In this document: positions 44,280 through 47,498 of the stretch, one piece after another | Numbering within the stretch: the stretch's first letter is position 1 | Layout: each line of letters starts with the position of its first letter | NCBI RefSeq assembly: GCF_000192745.1 | Contig: NC_015259.1 | Coordinates: 1,875,001-1,939,000 of the forward strand | DNA length: 64,000 nt | Source of the DNA: Polymorphum gilvum SL003B-26A1 | GTDB lineage: Bacteria > Pseudomonadota > Alphaproteobacteria > Rhizobiales > Stappiaceae | Reading direction: 5' to 3' | Position numbers and translations under genes: made by a program | The notes under the pieces: generated by a model | The model's input: only the letters and a program-made list of their open reading frames with translations | Database searches by the model: none | Told to the model about the DNA's origin: nothing

Positions 44280-44723
44280 TCAAAGCGCGGCGAAGGCGGC
44301 GCGGATCCTGTCGGCCTGGTCGGCGAGGACGGCCTGGTCGGCCATCTCGCCGGTGTGGGGCTTCAGCTTGACGCCCTCGAAGCGCGGGATGACGTGGACG
44401 TGGGTGTGGAACACGACCTGACCGCCGGCGGTTTCGGAAAACTGCTGGATGGTCGTGCCGTCGGCATCGAAGGCCTTCACGACCGCGCGGGCGGTTTTCT
44501 GCACGGTGGCCATGACGGCGGACAGGTCGGCCGGCGCGATGTCGAGGATGTTGCGCGACGGCGCCTTCGGGATGACCAGCACGTGGCCGTCGCCGCGCGG
44601 CATGATGTCCATGATCACGATGGTGGCATCGTCTTCGTAGACCTTGTGGCTGGGCAGTTCGCCCCGCAGGATCCTGGCGAACACGTTCTGGTCGTCGTAA
44701 GGGGCAGGGGCGGCAATCGGCAT
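44280..44723 (-). CDS. HIT-family nucleotide hydrolase
   Basis: 147 residues. The histidine triad reads VVFHTHVHVIPR (HxHxH), preceded by NVFARILRGELPSHKVYEDDATIVIMDI and GHVLVIPKAPSRNI, as in the HINT/YcfF branch, which hydrolyses adenosine phosphoramidates and dinucleoside polyphosphates. It is cytoplasmic. It is divergent from the secreted-protein locus across a 309-base gap in which no gene or clear promoter was recognised. Confidence 0.92.
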   Translation of the reverse strand: MPIAAPAPYDDQNVFARILRGELPSHKVYEDDATIVIMDIMPRGDGHVLVIPKAPSRNILDIAPADLSAVMATVQKTARAVVKAFDADGTTIQQFSETAGGQVVFHTHVHVIPRFEGVKLKPHTGEMADQAVLADQADRIRAAFAAL

Positions 44724-45032
44724 GGGTGTCTCCGGTTCGGCAGTCCCGCGACGGGTGCGGGCGTCATCCGTCTCTTGGCACCACAATCGGCGTTCGCATT
44801 CAAGATCCCATTGCGGTTCGCGTCGACAAAGCGACCGCCCGTGGCATGGCGCATGCGCTCGCCGCAGTTCATGTGGTGAGTCAGCTGTCGGCAAAAGGCG
44901 AGTCGAACGAATCGCTTGGCCCGGGATGTTCAAGCAGGTGGCAAGCGGGTGGCGGATTGATCCAGCGCATTGCCGCCGCGTCGAAACAGGTCTTCGCTTG
45001 GCTGGTGTCCACGCTCGGCTGCAGGCCCGCTC

Positions 45033-46241
45033 ATGTCTCGCCTTCCGCTTTCCGCCGTCGCTTCGGTGGTTCTCGTTCTCTCCACCGCAGCCTTCGGGGC
45101 GCGCGCCTATGCGCTCGAGCAGGACGACCTGGACAGCCTGAGCCGGCATCTGGCGGCGAGCGGCGAGGCGGCTGCGCGGTTCGGCGAGGTCGGCGAGACG
45201 CTGACCAATCTCGGCAAGAATTCCTTCGCGGGCGCGGGCACGGGCAGCCAGAAGCGGGACCTGGCGCGGCGGGCCAATGCTGCGCTCGATCCCTGGCGCA
45301 GGGCCTCGGCGGCGACGAAGGCGAGCCTGCCCTACAAGGTGGCGCCGCATGCCTTCATGGTCTCGGACGTGATCACCTCGGTGATGGCGCCGGGGATCGA
45401 GGGCGACTATCGGGGGGCGACCAGCAACGCGGTGAACATCGCCGTGTCGGTCCAGGCGGTCGGCGGAGGGGTGGCGCTGTTCGGAGCGATCGGCAGCGGG
45501 GTGGGGGCGACGCTGGGGTCGTTCATCCCGGTGGTCGGCACGGCCTTCGGCGGCATGGTCGGCGGCGCCATCGGCAAGGTGGCTGGCGGCTACATCGCCG
45601 CCACGGGCTACGACCTCTACGTCAAGGAGGCGGTCGGGCAGGGCGTCGACGCCGGCCTGTCGTGCCTGTTCGACACCGACCCGCTGAGTCAGGCCCGGCA
45701 GGCGCGGCAGGAGTTCCTGCGCGCCAAGGCGGCTGCCGACCTGCTGCCGCGCTGGGAGGCGCTGCATGCGGTCGGCCGCGACTTCGGCGGCGGCGAGACC
45801 GAGCTTGTCGGACCGGGCGGGTTGCCGCGTGTCCTGCCGCCGGACGTGGAGCCGAATGTCGCGCAGACGACCGGCAACGTCCTGGCCGGCGTGCGCAAGT
45901 TCAGTCTAGGTCCGCAGGTCTGGGAGATCACGGATGGCGCCGCGACCTTCGAGACGGTCTATCCAGGTGTCGTTCACACGACCCATACCGCGCGCGGTAC
46001 GGTCGGGGTCAACCGGATCGAGGGCACGATGATCTGGGTCCATCGCGACAATGACAGGCGATGCGGCTATGTCGTCCGCGAAACCCATCCTTTCCTCTTT
46101 CTCTTCACTGCAGACACGGTATCCGGCACGATTTCGCCGGGCTCGCTCGAGATCCTGGAGACCCGCGGATCATGCGAGCAGTCTTGGGAGAATCGAATGC
46201 AGCAGACCACGTTCACAGCGCCCTGGGGCAAGGTGGAGTAG
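45033..46241 (+). CDS. Unrecognised secreted protein with glycine-zipper region
   Basis: 402 residues from the ATG at 45033. A signal peptide (LPLSAVASVVLVLSTAAFG, cleavage near ARAYA) is followed by a short conserved block (LEQDDLDSLSRHLAASGEAA) that is repeated in the next frame. Around residues 145-192 comes a hydrophobic GxxxG-rich stretch (GAIGSGVGATLGSFIPVVG, then GGMVGGAIGKVAGG), the kind of sequence that packs as helical hairpins in membranes. The C-terminal 150 residues are soluble and beta-rich with two cysteines. I do not recognise a family. It could be a periplasmic or secreted membrane-active protein; this is inference. Confidence 0.7.
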   Translation: MSRLPLSAVASVVLVLSTAAFGARAYALEQDDLDSLSRHLAASGEAAARFGEVGETLTNLGKNSFAGAGTGSQKRDLARRANAALDPWRRASAATKASLPYKVAPHAFMVSDVITSVMAPGIEGDYRGATSNAVNIAVSVQAVGGGVALFGAIGSGVGATLGSFIPVVGTAFGGMVGGAIGKVAGGYIAATGYDLYVKEAVGQGVDAGLSCLFDTDPLSQARQARQEFLRAKAAADLLPRWEALHAVGRDFGGGETELVGPGGLPRVLPPDVEPNVAQTTGNVLAGVRKFSLGPQVWEITDGAATFETVYPGVVHTTHTARGTVGVNRIEGTMIWVHRDNDRRCGYVVRETHPFLFLFTADTVSGTISPGSLEILETRGSCEQSWENRMQQTTFTAPWGKVE

Positions 46242-46245
46242 GCCC

Positions 46246-46401
46246 ATGCCCCGGTCCTCAACGATCCGGTCCGGCCTTTTCGTCGTGTTGTTGTGTTGGG
46301 CGCATGGCGCCCATGCGCGCGAGCAGGAGGACCTGGACGGCCTGAGCCGGCATCTGGCGGCGACCGGTGAAGCGGTGGAGAAAGAAGGATGCGAGCCTTG
46401 A
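46246..46401 (+). pseudogene. Truncated paralogue of the preceding secreted protein
   Basis: A 51-codon frame beginning four bases after the previous stop. It has its own signal peptide (GLFVVLLCWAHGAHA) and then REQEDLDGLSRHLAATGEA, nearly the same as the block at the mature N-terminus of the preceding protein. Over 55 bases (45117-45171 versus 46321-46375) only five differ. Everything downstream in the long copy is missing; the frame runs into the start of the next gene and ends. It is either a relic of a tandem duplication or a minimal short paralogue. Confidence 0.6.
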
Positions 46402-47417
46402 AGATCGTCACATCGTTCGCGATGGCTGCACTCTTCTGGCTGGCCGGCGCAATCGCTCCTGGTTCCTCGCCGGCGATGGCCGACGCAGACCGACCGACGC
46501 TCGCCGAGGTCACGGCATTTCAGCACGTGCTGAGGTTTCGCGACGCCATGATCTCCGATCCCAAGGCGGCGATCCGGAGCCTGACCACGCGCAGCGGACG
46601 CAGGCAACTCGACGCCATCGCCGAGGAGATGGACGAGGCCGGCAGCGGCAGCGCCGGCTGGCGCACCCTGCTCGGGACCTCGGTGTTCACCGTCGAGGGG
46701 CTCGCTTCCGAGCGCAGGCTCGTGGTCTTCTACAATCCTTTCGTCGACACGGCGCTGTTCACCGTCTGGGACGGGAAGCGGATCGCCGAGGCCGAATGGG
46801 TGCCCGGCGACCTGGTGCGCGCGGCCGACGCCGAGATCGATCCGCAGCCGCTGTGGCTGCGCGGGGCACAGTACCGGCCGGAGGCATTGGCGCAAGCCGT
46901 CGTCGCCACCGTGTCCGCCCTCGAACGCCGCTTTGCCGGGGACGCGATCGCCGGCTGGCGCCGCGGGCTCGGCATCGAGGACGGCAGGGCGTATCGCCGC
47001 TACGTCGCGCCGATCGTTGCCGTCAGGCTCTACGAGGCGCAGATGCGGCTGAAAGCGCTCGCCGTGCCGACGACGGGAGAGGATCCGCGTCTGGCGCAGC
47101 TGCGGGCGGCCGTCGCGGGGCTGTTGCGCAGCGTGCGGACGCAGGGCTTTGCCGGACCACTCGCCGAGGCCGGGGACACGAGCGGGCCGATGCGCGATGC
47201 GCTGTCACGGATCAATCCGCGCCTGATGGACGCGCTGGCGCCGGTCGCCTTCGTCGCGGGGGAGGGCCATGCGACAGTTTTCCTGACATCGGCGGCGACG
47301 GCCGATTTCGCGATCTCGGTGCGCTATGCGCAGACCGCTTCCGGCTACGCCTTGAGGCAGCTCGAATACCTGCCATTCGCCGCGATCCACCAGGCAGCGG
47401 CAAACGAGGTCCGGTGA
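46389..47417 (+). CDS. Unrecognised secreted protein
   Basis: 342 residues. A signal peptide (LKIVTSFAMAALFWLAGAIA, cleavage near AMA) is followed by about 310 residues of mixed helix and strand: HVLRFRDAMISDPKAAIRSLTTRSGRRQLDA, ERRLVVFYNPFVDTALFTVWDGKRIAEAEWVPGDLV, and DALAPVAFVAGEGHATVFLTS. No cysteine is seen in the mature part. No family is recognised. The start codon and its ribosome site (GGAG) lie within the truncated paralogue's frame, so the three frames form one transcript with the 45033 gene. The stop lies inside a 12-bp repeat array. Confidence 0.7.
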   Translation: MRALKIVTSFAMAALFWLAGAIAPGSSPAMADADRPTLAEVTAFQHVLRFRDAMISDPKAAIRSLTTRSGRRQLDAIAEEMDEAGSGSAGWRTLLGTSVFTVEGLASERRLVVFYNPFVDTALFTVWDGKRIAEAEWVPGDLVRAADAEIDPQPLWLRGAQYRPEALAQAVVATVSALERRFAGDAIAGWRRGLGIEDGRAYRRYVAPIVAVRLYEAQMRLKALAVPTTGEDPRLAQLRAAVAGLLRSVRTQGFAGPLAEAGDTSGPMRDALSRINPRLMDALAPVAFVAGEGHATVFLTSAATADFAISVRYAQTASGYALRQLEYLPFAAIHQAAANEVR

Positions 47418-47450: not shown

Positions 47451-47498
47451 CGGCGGACTGCGAAAGACGAGTCGCGCCAGGCGCTTGGCCGCGAACCT

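What the first reader, a model, noticed from the sequence alone, without database searches (positions are those of the whole stretch)
45033..47417. Unrecognised secreted-protein locus with an internal truncated duplication
Two unfamiliar exported proteins (402 and 342 residues) flank a 51-codon frame that repeats the signal peptide layout and the first conserved block of the 402-residue protein (50 of 55 bases identical). The short copy provides the ribosome site of the third gene. This looks like a tandem duplication that lost most of the second copy, or a family with long and short members. Nothing around it explains its function.
Basis: partly seen in the sequence, partly recalled or inferred. 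Interest (0 to 1): 0.55.

Follow-up and report, generated by a model that had tools for sequence, protein, structure and literature searches.

The report
Exported gene pair with decayed duplicate
A bacterium has probably picked up a pair of unnamed genes for exported proteins, whose relatives swap their tail ends like interchangeable tool heads, and between the two genes lies what is probably the worn-down stump of a second copy of the first gene.

Summary
A (402 aa), a 51-codon frame and C (342 aa) lie as stated, and the short frame repeats the first mature block of A (69 nt, 90%). A and C match no Pfam or NCBIfam family above cut-off. A–C is a conserved gene pair, found at five loci in four genomes of the Pseudolabrys genus (4 of 43) and in none of 36 other same-family genomes. 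It sits in an interval of under 220 bp in 17 of 19 relatives, so it was probably acquired. More interesting, A is modular: a front part with an invariant glycine zipper co-varies with C (rho 0.89), while the C-terminal domain is exchanged (rho 0.04). That suggests a membrane-acting exported protein with swappable tips and a dedicated partner, perhaps for antagonism between bacteria. Function is inferred, not shown.

The parts
45033..46241 (+). Gene A: exported 402-aa protein; signal peptide about 1-27, helical N-part, hydrophobic glycine-zipper stretch about 132-185 with GxxxGxxxGxxxG at 173/177/181/185, C-terminal beta domain about 281-402 (exchangeable 'tip', type I)
   Evidence: Translation; hydropathy; zipper glycines invariant in 7 of 7 rows of alignment A4; AlphaFold pLDDT per ten residues 76-90 in 281-402 except 59 at 381-390, and low before 281
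45103..45171 (+). First mature block of A, the reference copy of the repeat
   Evidence: D1
46246..46401 (+). 51-codon frame: probable 5' stump of a second A copy, with its own signal-peptide-like start; overlaps the start of C by 13 nt
   Evidence: full second copy in G794
46307..46375 (+). Repeated block inside the short frame (90% identical to 45103-45171)
46377..46380 (+). GGAG, likely ribosome-binding site of C, inside the short frame
   Evidence: sequence; no experiment
46389..47417 (+). Gene C: exported 342-aa partner; C-terminal part about 230-331 modelled as NTF2/cystatin-like
   Evidence: translation; five relatives 50-63% identical; fold Z up to 7.5 on a low-confidence model

Best explanation
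The locus is a probably horizontally acquired two-gene module, A-C, with the decayed 5' end of a second A copy between the genes. The likely history is A1-A2-C, as still seen in one Pseudolabrys genome. A2 then lost its body, keeping its start, its first block and the ribosome site that serves C. The three frames lie end to end (A stop, 4 nt, short start; short stop codon begins 10 nt after C's ATG begins), so ribosomes may still pass from A through the stump to C, and the stump may be kept only as that bridge. How it works (inferred): A is exported by the Sec route. Its invariant glycine zipper inserts into or aggregates at a membrane. The C-terminal beta domain is an exchangeable tip that chooses a ligand or target. 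C, also exported, partners the conserved part of A, as chaperone or immunity. The recombining tip and patchy spread suggest antagonism between bacteria or another arms-race role. Shown: the repeat, the A-C pairing, the extra 2.78 kb between otherwise adjacent genes, the tandem full copy (through a contig overlap) and the tip exchange. Inferred: deletion history, coupling, membrane action, role. My odds: acquired module about 0.85, stump of a full copy about 0.65, antagonism about 0.3.
For: A directly precedes C in 6 of 6 loci (window; L006, L007; L020-L022). Full tandem A1-A2-C in G794, exact 135-bp contig overlap. Module absent from 36 other same-family and 24 same-order genomes. FemAB and HIT matches lie 18-218 bp apart in 17 of 19 relatives but 2.78 kb apart here. 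A N-part and C identities correlate (rho 0.89, 20 pairs), tip and C do not (0.04). L007 and L020 are 79% alike in the N-part and 77% in C, but their tips align over only 64 residues at 31%. L020 and L022 have tips 72% alike with N-parts only 37% alike. Patchwork identity between G794 A1 and A2 (98% nt in codons 160-180; 29-50% in the tip windows) points to local recombination. Between A and the stump 7 of 21 codons differ, 5 non-synonymous and 2 synonymous, no sign of constraint.
Against: The stump is closer to the window's own A (53 of 60 bases) than to either G794 copy (42 of 60 each), which fits an independent local duplication as well, or gene conversion. The G794 tandem rests on a contig overlap in a metagenome assembly. 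No other genome of the window's own genus was held, so the history cannot be followed closely. No known toxin domain, secretion system or transmembrane immunity protein was found. Most of both structure models is of low confidence. The 20 pairs behind the correlation are not independent, G794's single C is used for both its A genes, and several tip identities come from short alignments (down to 8 residues).
Confidence: 0.5

Rival explanations
1. The short frame never was a full gene: the 5' end of A was duplicated once and serves as a leader that keeps C translated after the A-C spacing was widened.
For: The block resembles the window's own A most (53 of 60 bases, against 42 of 60 to either G794 copy). 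In four relatives A and C are only 10-13 nt apart, so close spacing seems to matter (coordinates; two of the C starts are my choice).
Against: A fresh copy should also share signal-peptide DNA, but that part is no more alike than shuffled sequence. A full second copy with the same pattern, divergent signal peptide and conserved first block, exists in G794.
Confidence: 0.28
2. The short frame makes a working small exported peptide, for example one that regulates or mimics A.
For: It has a start with a GGTGGAG site 7 nt upstream, a signal-peptide-like start and codon-position GC of 0.69, 0.52, 0.75.
Against: It occurs in 1 of 6 loci. Differences from A show no excess of silent changes (5 non-synonymous, 2 synonymous). 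No 19-residue window reaches the hydropathy of the A and C signals. The coding-like composition is expected of any stump.
Confidence: 0.08
3. A-C is an ordinary envelope-maintenance or ligand-binding pair, not a weapon: A anchors a small beta-barrel binding domain at a membrane and C is its periplasmic chaperone.
For: The tip is modelled as a small beta barrel with avidin-type and OprH-type neighbours (Z about 7-8.3). Exported NTF2-like proteins are not typically toxins (recalled). No toxin or secretion family matched.
Against: Patchy presence (4 of 43 genomes of one genus), different insertion sites and exchange of tips are unusual for housekeeping genes.
Confidence: 0.4
4. A-C is a toxin-immunity pair in which C neutralises the variable C-terminal domain of A.
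For: Tight A-C pairing and swapped C-terminal domains resemble polymorphic toxin loci (recalled).
Against: C does not follow the tip: rho 0.04 against 0.89 for the N-part. One C follows two A genes with unalike tips in G794.
Confidence: 0.04

Closest known systems
Cdz glycine-zipper bacteriocins of Caulobacter (CdzC/CdzD with CdzI; PMC5380434)
   Same: Exported glycine-zipper proteins in an alphaproteobacterium, with a dedicated third protein, and many systems apparently horizontally acquired (passages of the paper read)
   Different: Cdz toxins are 84-86 aa and use an adjacent type I secretion system, with a small transmembrane immunity protein. A is 402 aa with a Sec-type signal and a beta tip; none of the seven window neighbours scanned is a secretion gene; C shows no transmembrane stretch apart from its signal
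Polymorphic toxins / contact-dependent inhibition effectors (recalled)
   Same: Conserved front part, exchangeable C-terminal tip, tandem copies with different tips
   Different: Much smaller; no known toxin domain found; the neighbour gene tracks the front part, not the tip
Tde1 of Agrobacterium, a T6SS effector with a glycine zipper and adaptor Tap1 (PMC10240207, abstract read)
   Same: GxxxG motifs in the part that an adaptor binds, thought to permeabilise the target membrane
   Different: Tde1 is a DNase delivered by T6SS; A has its own signal peptide, and none of the seven window neighbours scanned is a T6SS gene
Pfam Gly-zipper_Omp and similar families
   Same: Glycine zipper in an exported protein
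   Different: Below cut-off: best E 0.039, 1 of 7 members scanned

Membership tests
Cdz-type glycine-zipper bacteriocin | Glycine-zipper motif | tested here: met
   G173, G177, G181, G185 of A invariant in 7 of 7 rows
Cdz-type glycine-zipper bacteriocin | Small (about 5-10 kDa) toxin | tested here: not met
   A is 402 aa; paper gives 84 and 86 aa
Cdz-type glycine-zipper bacteriocin | Adjacent type I secretion genes | tested here: not met
   The seven window neighbours scanned are GST, HIT, FemAB-like, GDPD, YjgF-like, EipB-like and AzlC; neighbours at the other loci were read by eye only
Cdz-type glycine-zipper bacteriocin | Small transmembrane immunity protein | tested here: not met
   C is 342 aa with no hydrophobic window beyond its signal
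Polymorphic toxin system | Exchange of the C-terminal domain on a conserved front part | tested here: met
   L007/L020 and L020/L022 comparisons
Polymorphic toxin system | Immunity gene co-varying with the tip | tested here: not met
   rho tip-C 0.04, N-part-C 0.89 over 20 non-independent pairs
Polymorphic toxin system | Known or demonstrable toxin activity of the tip | not testable with these tools
   No Pfam or NCBIfam family above cut-off and no convincing PADLOC match; no assay
Avidin/calycin-like barrel (tip of A) | Eight-stranded meander barrel fold | tested here: inconclusive
   Best Z 8.3 (OprH, rmsd 3.6, 104 aligned), avidin-type rows up to 8.0; Foldseek best E 0.06 for another protein, best avidin-type row 0.18
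NTF2/cystatin-like fold (C-terminal part of C) | Helices packed on a curved sheet | tested here: inconclusive
   Z up to 7.5 over about residues 230-331 of a model with mean pLDDT 49
Pfam Gly-zipper families | Score above curated cut-off | tested here: not met
   Gly-zipper_Omp E 0.039 and Gly-zipper_YMGG E 0.54, 1 of 7 members each; the table shows no scores for them, but such E-values are far from a curated match

The most novel reading that the evidence does not exclude
A-C founds a new class of self-exported, tip-swapping membrane effectors in Alphaproteobacteria. The conserved glycine zipper is the killing or translocating part, the beta tip chooses the target cell, and C protects the producer from the zipper part. 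This would explain why C tracks the front and not the tip. The larger C family, with distant members in G479, G426 and G348 each beside another exported protein, would then be a widespread unannotated system.
Probability: 0.22. Interest if true: 0.75.

Novelty: new variant of a known kind. Interest (0 to 1): 0.45.

Why it matters
If the reading is right, a pair of genes without a family name is a mobile, recombining module of exported proteins with interchangeable tips. The co-variation pattern makes a clear prediction: C binds the zipper-bearing front of A, whatever the tip. The decayed copy shows one way such loci may turn over: tandem duplication, tip exchange, local gene conversion, then loss. 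The profile of C made here recovers remote relatives; those in G479 matched no Pfam family either, so the profile could be used to chart the system.

Tried and rejected
A class-level search with A alone gave two weak hits besides the window's genome (G210, G364; 3 of 385). The G210 hit lies in a membrane protein that reads like an AI-2E-type transporter (my reading of the frame) and was dropped as a chance match of hydrophobic sequence; G364 (a 2908-residue frame) was not read. The genome-contig scan with A found no relative; the scan with C found two. PHROG matches of A to tape-measure and other phage proteins (E 7e-5 and weaker) and PADLOC LeoB (0.0022 for the L022 A protein, 0.019 for L020) cover mainly the glycine-rich stretch, and KwaA (0.064, L021) a short piece of the tip; none was taken as homology. 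Plasmid and phage collections gave no relative of A or C, nor did viral contigs for C (A was not scanned there). An internal repeat in C, suspected by eye, was not supported (hhalign probability 0.3%). Homology among the three tip types was not supported by profile comparison (0.7-2.2%), so I do not claim that they share a fold. The exported proteins beside the distant C relatives in G479 and G426 could not be tied to A by sequence (hhalign 7.6% and 0.2%); that of G348 was not tested. No promoter-like site was found, and one terminator-like site against 1.0 in shuffles. PDB sequence searches gave nothing credible (best E 0.059). The fold lists did not single out any family; families absent from them are not excluded. 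Paper searches with 'Pseudolabrys' plus 'toxin', 'polymorphic toxin' plus 'gene conversion', and 'NTF2-like' plus 'glycine zipper' listed 2, 1 and 1 papers, none about this pair by title and opening of the abstract; none was opened. I did not search more widely and do not claim that the pair is absent from print.

Limits of the counts: in the larger genome draws only the best few candidates per genome were scored (4, 5 or 8), so misses are possible. The first empty-site script used the HIT protein in a wrong frame and was repeated; gaps there run between alignment ends, not annotated genes. Tip identities that rest on short alignments were kept in the correlation and weaken it; the A1-A2 pair of G794, which shares one C, was left out of its 20 pairs. 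The second insertion site (anmK-hydrolase) is variable: 40 of 43 genus genomes have anmK and 30 loci were returned. Of the 28 without the module, 11 have the two genes within 138 bp (one of them cut by a contig end), 4 have them 433-1422 bp apart, and 13 show no hydrolase within the held flank.

Full report
OBSERVATION. Three frames follow each other on the + strand: A 45033-46241 (402 aa), a 51-codon frame 46246-46401 and C 46389-47417 (342 aa). The short frame repeats 69 nt of A at 90% (45103-45171 against 46307-46375), with 51 of 55 bases in the best ungapped 55-base stretch. The alignment score is 106; 300 codon shuffles reached at most 33. The signal peptides are alike in layout only; their DNA scores no better than shuffled sequence.

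KNOWN FAMILIES. A, C and the short frame have no Pfam or NCBIfam match above cut-off and no convincing PHROG match; A and C have no convincing PADLOC or PDB match. The seven neighbours scanned are ordinary: GST, HIT, FemAB-like, GDPD, YjgF-like, AzlC and EipB-like proteins.

RELATIVES. C has relatives in two Pseudolabrys metagenome assemblies (66% and 61% in the best segment), and A lies directly upstream in both. Profiles then found G865 (two loci) and G829 (3 of 248 genomes in the family of G794, G794 included). By genus search, 4 of 43 genomes carry C: G794, G795, G829 and G865. I call this genus Pseudolabrys because the records of G794 and G795 bear that name. A precedes C in 6 of 6 loci, window included. 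By coordinates the gap is 10-13 nt in four loci (two of the C starts are my choice), 99 nt in G794 and 147 nt in the window, where the short frame fills it. No match was found in 36 other genomes of the window's family or 24 of its order; no other genome of its own genus appeared among them. In a wider draw of 397 genomes of the order, the window's genome and a weak G479 hit matched C. Plasmids and phages gave none for A or C, and viral contigs none for C.

A FULL SECOND COPY. In G794 one contig ends inside an A gene, and the contig with C begins inside one; the ends overlap exactly by 135 bp. Read across, the order is A1 (414 aa), A2 (401 aa), C. A1 and A2 share their front part (65%), but their C-terminal domains are not recognisably alike. 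Over codons 160-180 of the alignment they are 98% identical in DNA, against 49-88% in the other front windows and 29-50% in the tip windows. This points to local recombination between the copies. The window's A has a tip of the A2 type (60%). Its front is slightly nearer A1 (56%) than A2 (53%), a difference too small to build on.

THE SHORT FRAME. With a full A1-A2-C in a relative, the simplest reading is that the window lost the body of its second copy. What remains is the start, the first block and the ribosome site before C. The same GGTGGAG stands at the end of A (46232-46238, before the short start) and before C (46374-46380), as if the last codons of the lost copy still serve C; this is suggestive only, because the match is seven bases. 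The 21 codons compared differ in 7, of which 5 change the residue; nothing indicates constraint. Against this reading, the stump is closer to the window's own A (53 of 60 bases) than to G794's copies (42 of 60 each), so a separate local duplication, or gene conversion, is possible.

ACQUISITION. In 17 of 19 relatives examined, matches to the flanking FemAB-like and HIT genes are 18-218 bp apart (exceptions: L027 shows no HIT gene in the held stretch; L040 shows a partial match 1.4 kb away). In the window the genes are 2.78 kb apart (20 other genomes searched, loci returned for 19). The module therefore probably entered this interval. An imperfect 31-bp direct repeat flanks it (44891-44921 and 47460-47490; p about 0.01 against 1902 random windows), too weak to name a mechanism. 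In Pseudolabrys, L020 and L022 sit between anmK and a hydrolase gene, and L021 elsewhere; 11 of 28 genus loci without the module have the anmK site closed, while in the other 17 the interval is wider or the hydrolase is out of reach.

MODULAR DESIGN. A has a signal peptide, a front part, a hydrophobic stretch with GxxxGxxxGxxxG invariant in 7 of 7 aligned relatives, and a C-terminal domain modelled with good confidence as all-beta (pLDDT per ten residues 76-90, except 59 at 381-390). Its nearest folds are small barrels (OprH Z 8.3, avidins up to 8.0), a level the tool itself warns can be a common arrangement. Tips fall into at least three sequence types: I in the window, G794 A2 and L007; II in G794 A1 and L021, grouped by eye and only 21% identical; III in L020 and L022. 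L007 and L020 are 79% alike in front and 77% in C, but their tips align over only 64 residues at 31%. L020 and L022 are 72% alike in tip but 37% in front and 53% in C. Over 20 pairs, front and C identities correlate at 0.89, tip and C at 0.04; the pairs are not independent, and some tip values rest on short alignments. So C appears to belong with the front of A, and the tip is exchanged independently.

WIDER FAMILY OF C. The C profile matches remote exported proteins in G479 (two, in a tandem array with two glycine-rich exported proteins), G426 and G348; profile comparison gives 95.9-97.1% probability, though the G479 pair against the G426/G348 pair gives only 51.5%. They share a motif of the form FYNPxxDxAxxTxW, with exceptions (read from the sequences). 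Each lies beside another exported protein; those of G479 and G426 could not be tied to A by sequence, and that of G348 was not tested.

HOW IT MAY WORK. Glycine zippers act in membrane-active proteins: Caulobacter CdzC/CdzD kill on contact (PMC5380434, passages read), and the Agrobacterium effector Tde1 uses one to enter target cells (PMC10240207, abstract read). I infer that A acts at a membrane through its zipper, that the tip gives specificity, and that C is chaperone or immunity for the zipper part. Antagonism is my leading specific role at about 0.3; an envelope or ligand-binding role is at least as likely overall. It is not a Cdz system (size, type I secretion genes and immunity protein all differ), nor a standard polymorphic toxin (C does not follow the tip).

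VERDICT. The short frame itself is most likely a relic. The find behind it is an unnamed, patchily spread, tip-swapping pair of exported proteins.

Noticed in passing
window 44891-44921 and 47460-47490: Imperfect 31-bp direct repeat on either side of the module; a similar stretch is also seen in the intergenic region of two relatives (L029, L030, read by eye).
   Followed up: partly
window 44723-45032: Three GANTC sites in 310 bp upstream of A, against 1.2 per kb in the window; the FemAB-HIT intergenic regions of L029 and L030 also look rich in GANTC by eye, the motif of the CcrM methylase (recalled).
   Followed up: no
L023 2763-7801 (- strand): In G479 a distant version of the pair seems to occur twice in tandem: glycine-rich exported protein, C relative, glycine-rich exported protein, C relative. 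None of the four has a Pfam match up to E 0.5.
   Followed up: partly
L052 1464-4610 and L053 3332-7589: Distant C relatives in G426 and G348 lie beside another exported protein and a gene that reads like Sel1 repeats with a peptidoglycan-binding domain (by eye; in L053 also ankyrin- and SUMF1-like parts).
   Followed up: no
L058-L087 (anmK to hydrolase interval): In Pseudolabrys this interval is variable: closed in 11 of 28 loci without the module, wider or with the hydrolase out of reach in the other 17. It may be an insertion hotspot.
   Followed up: partly
L006 2160-2872: Downstream of C in G794 lie a 146-aa exported protein without a Pfam match and an RDD-like membrane protein (E 1.7e-4, just below cut-off).
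   Followed up: no
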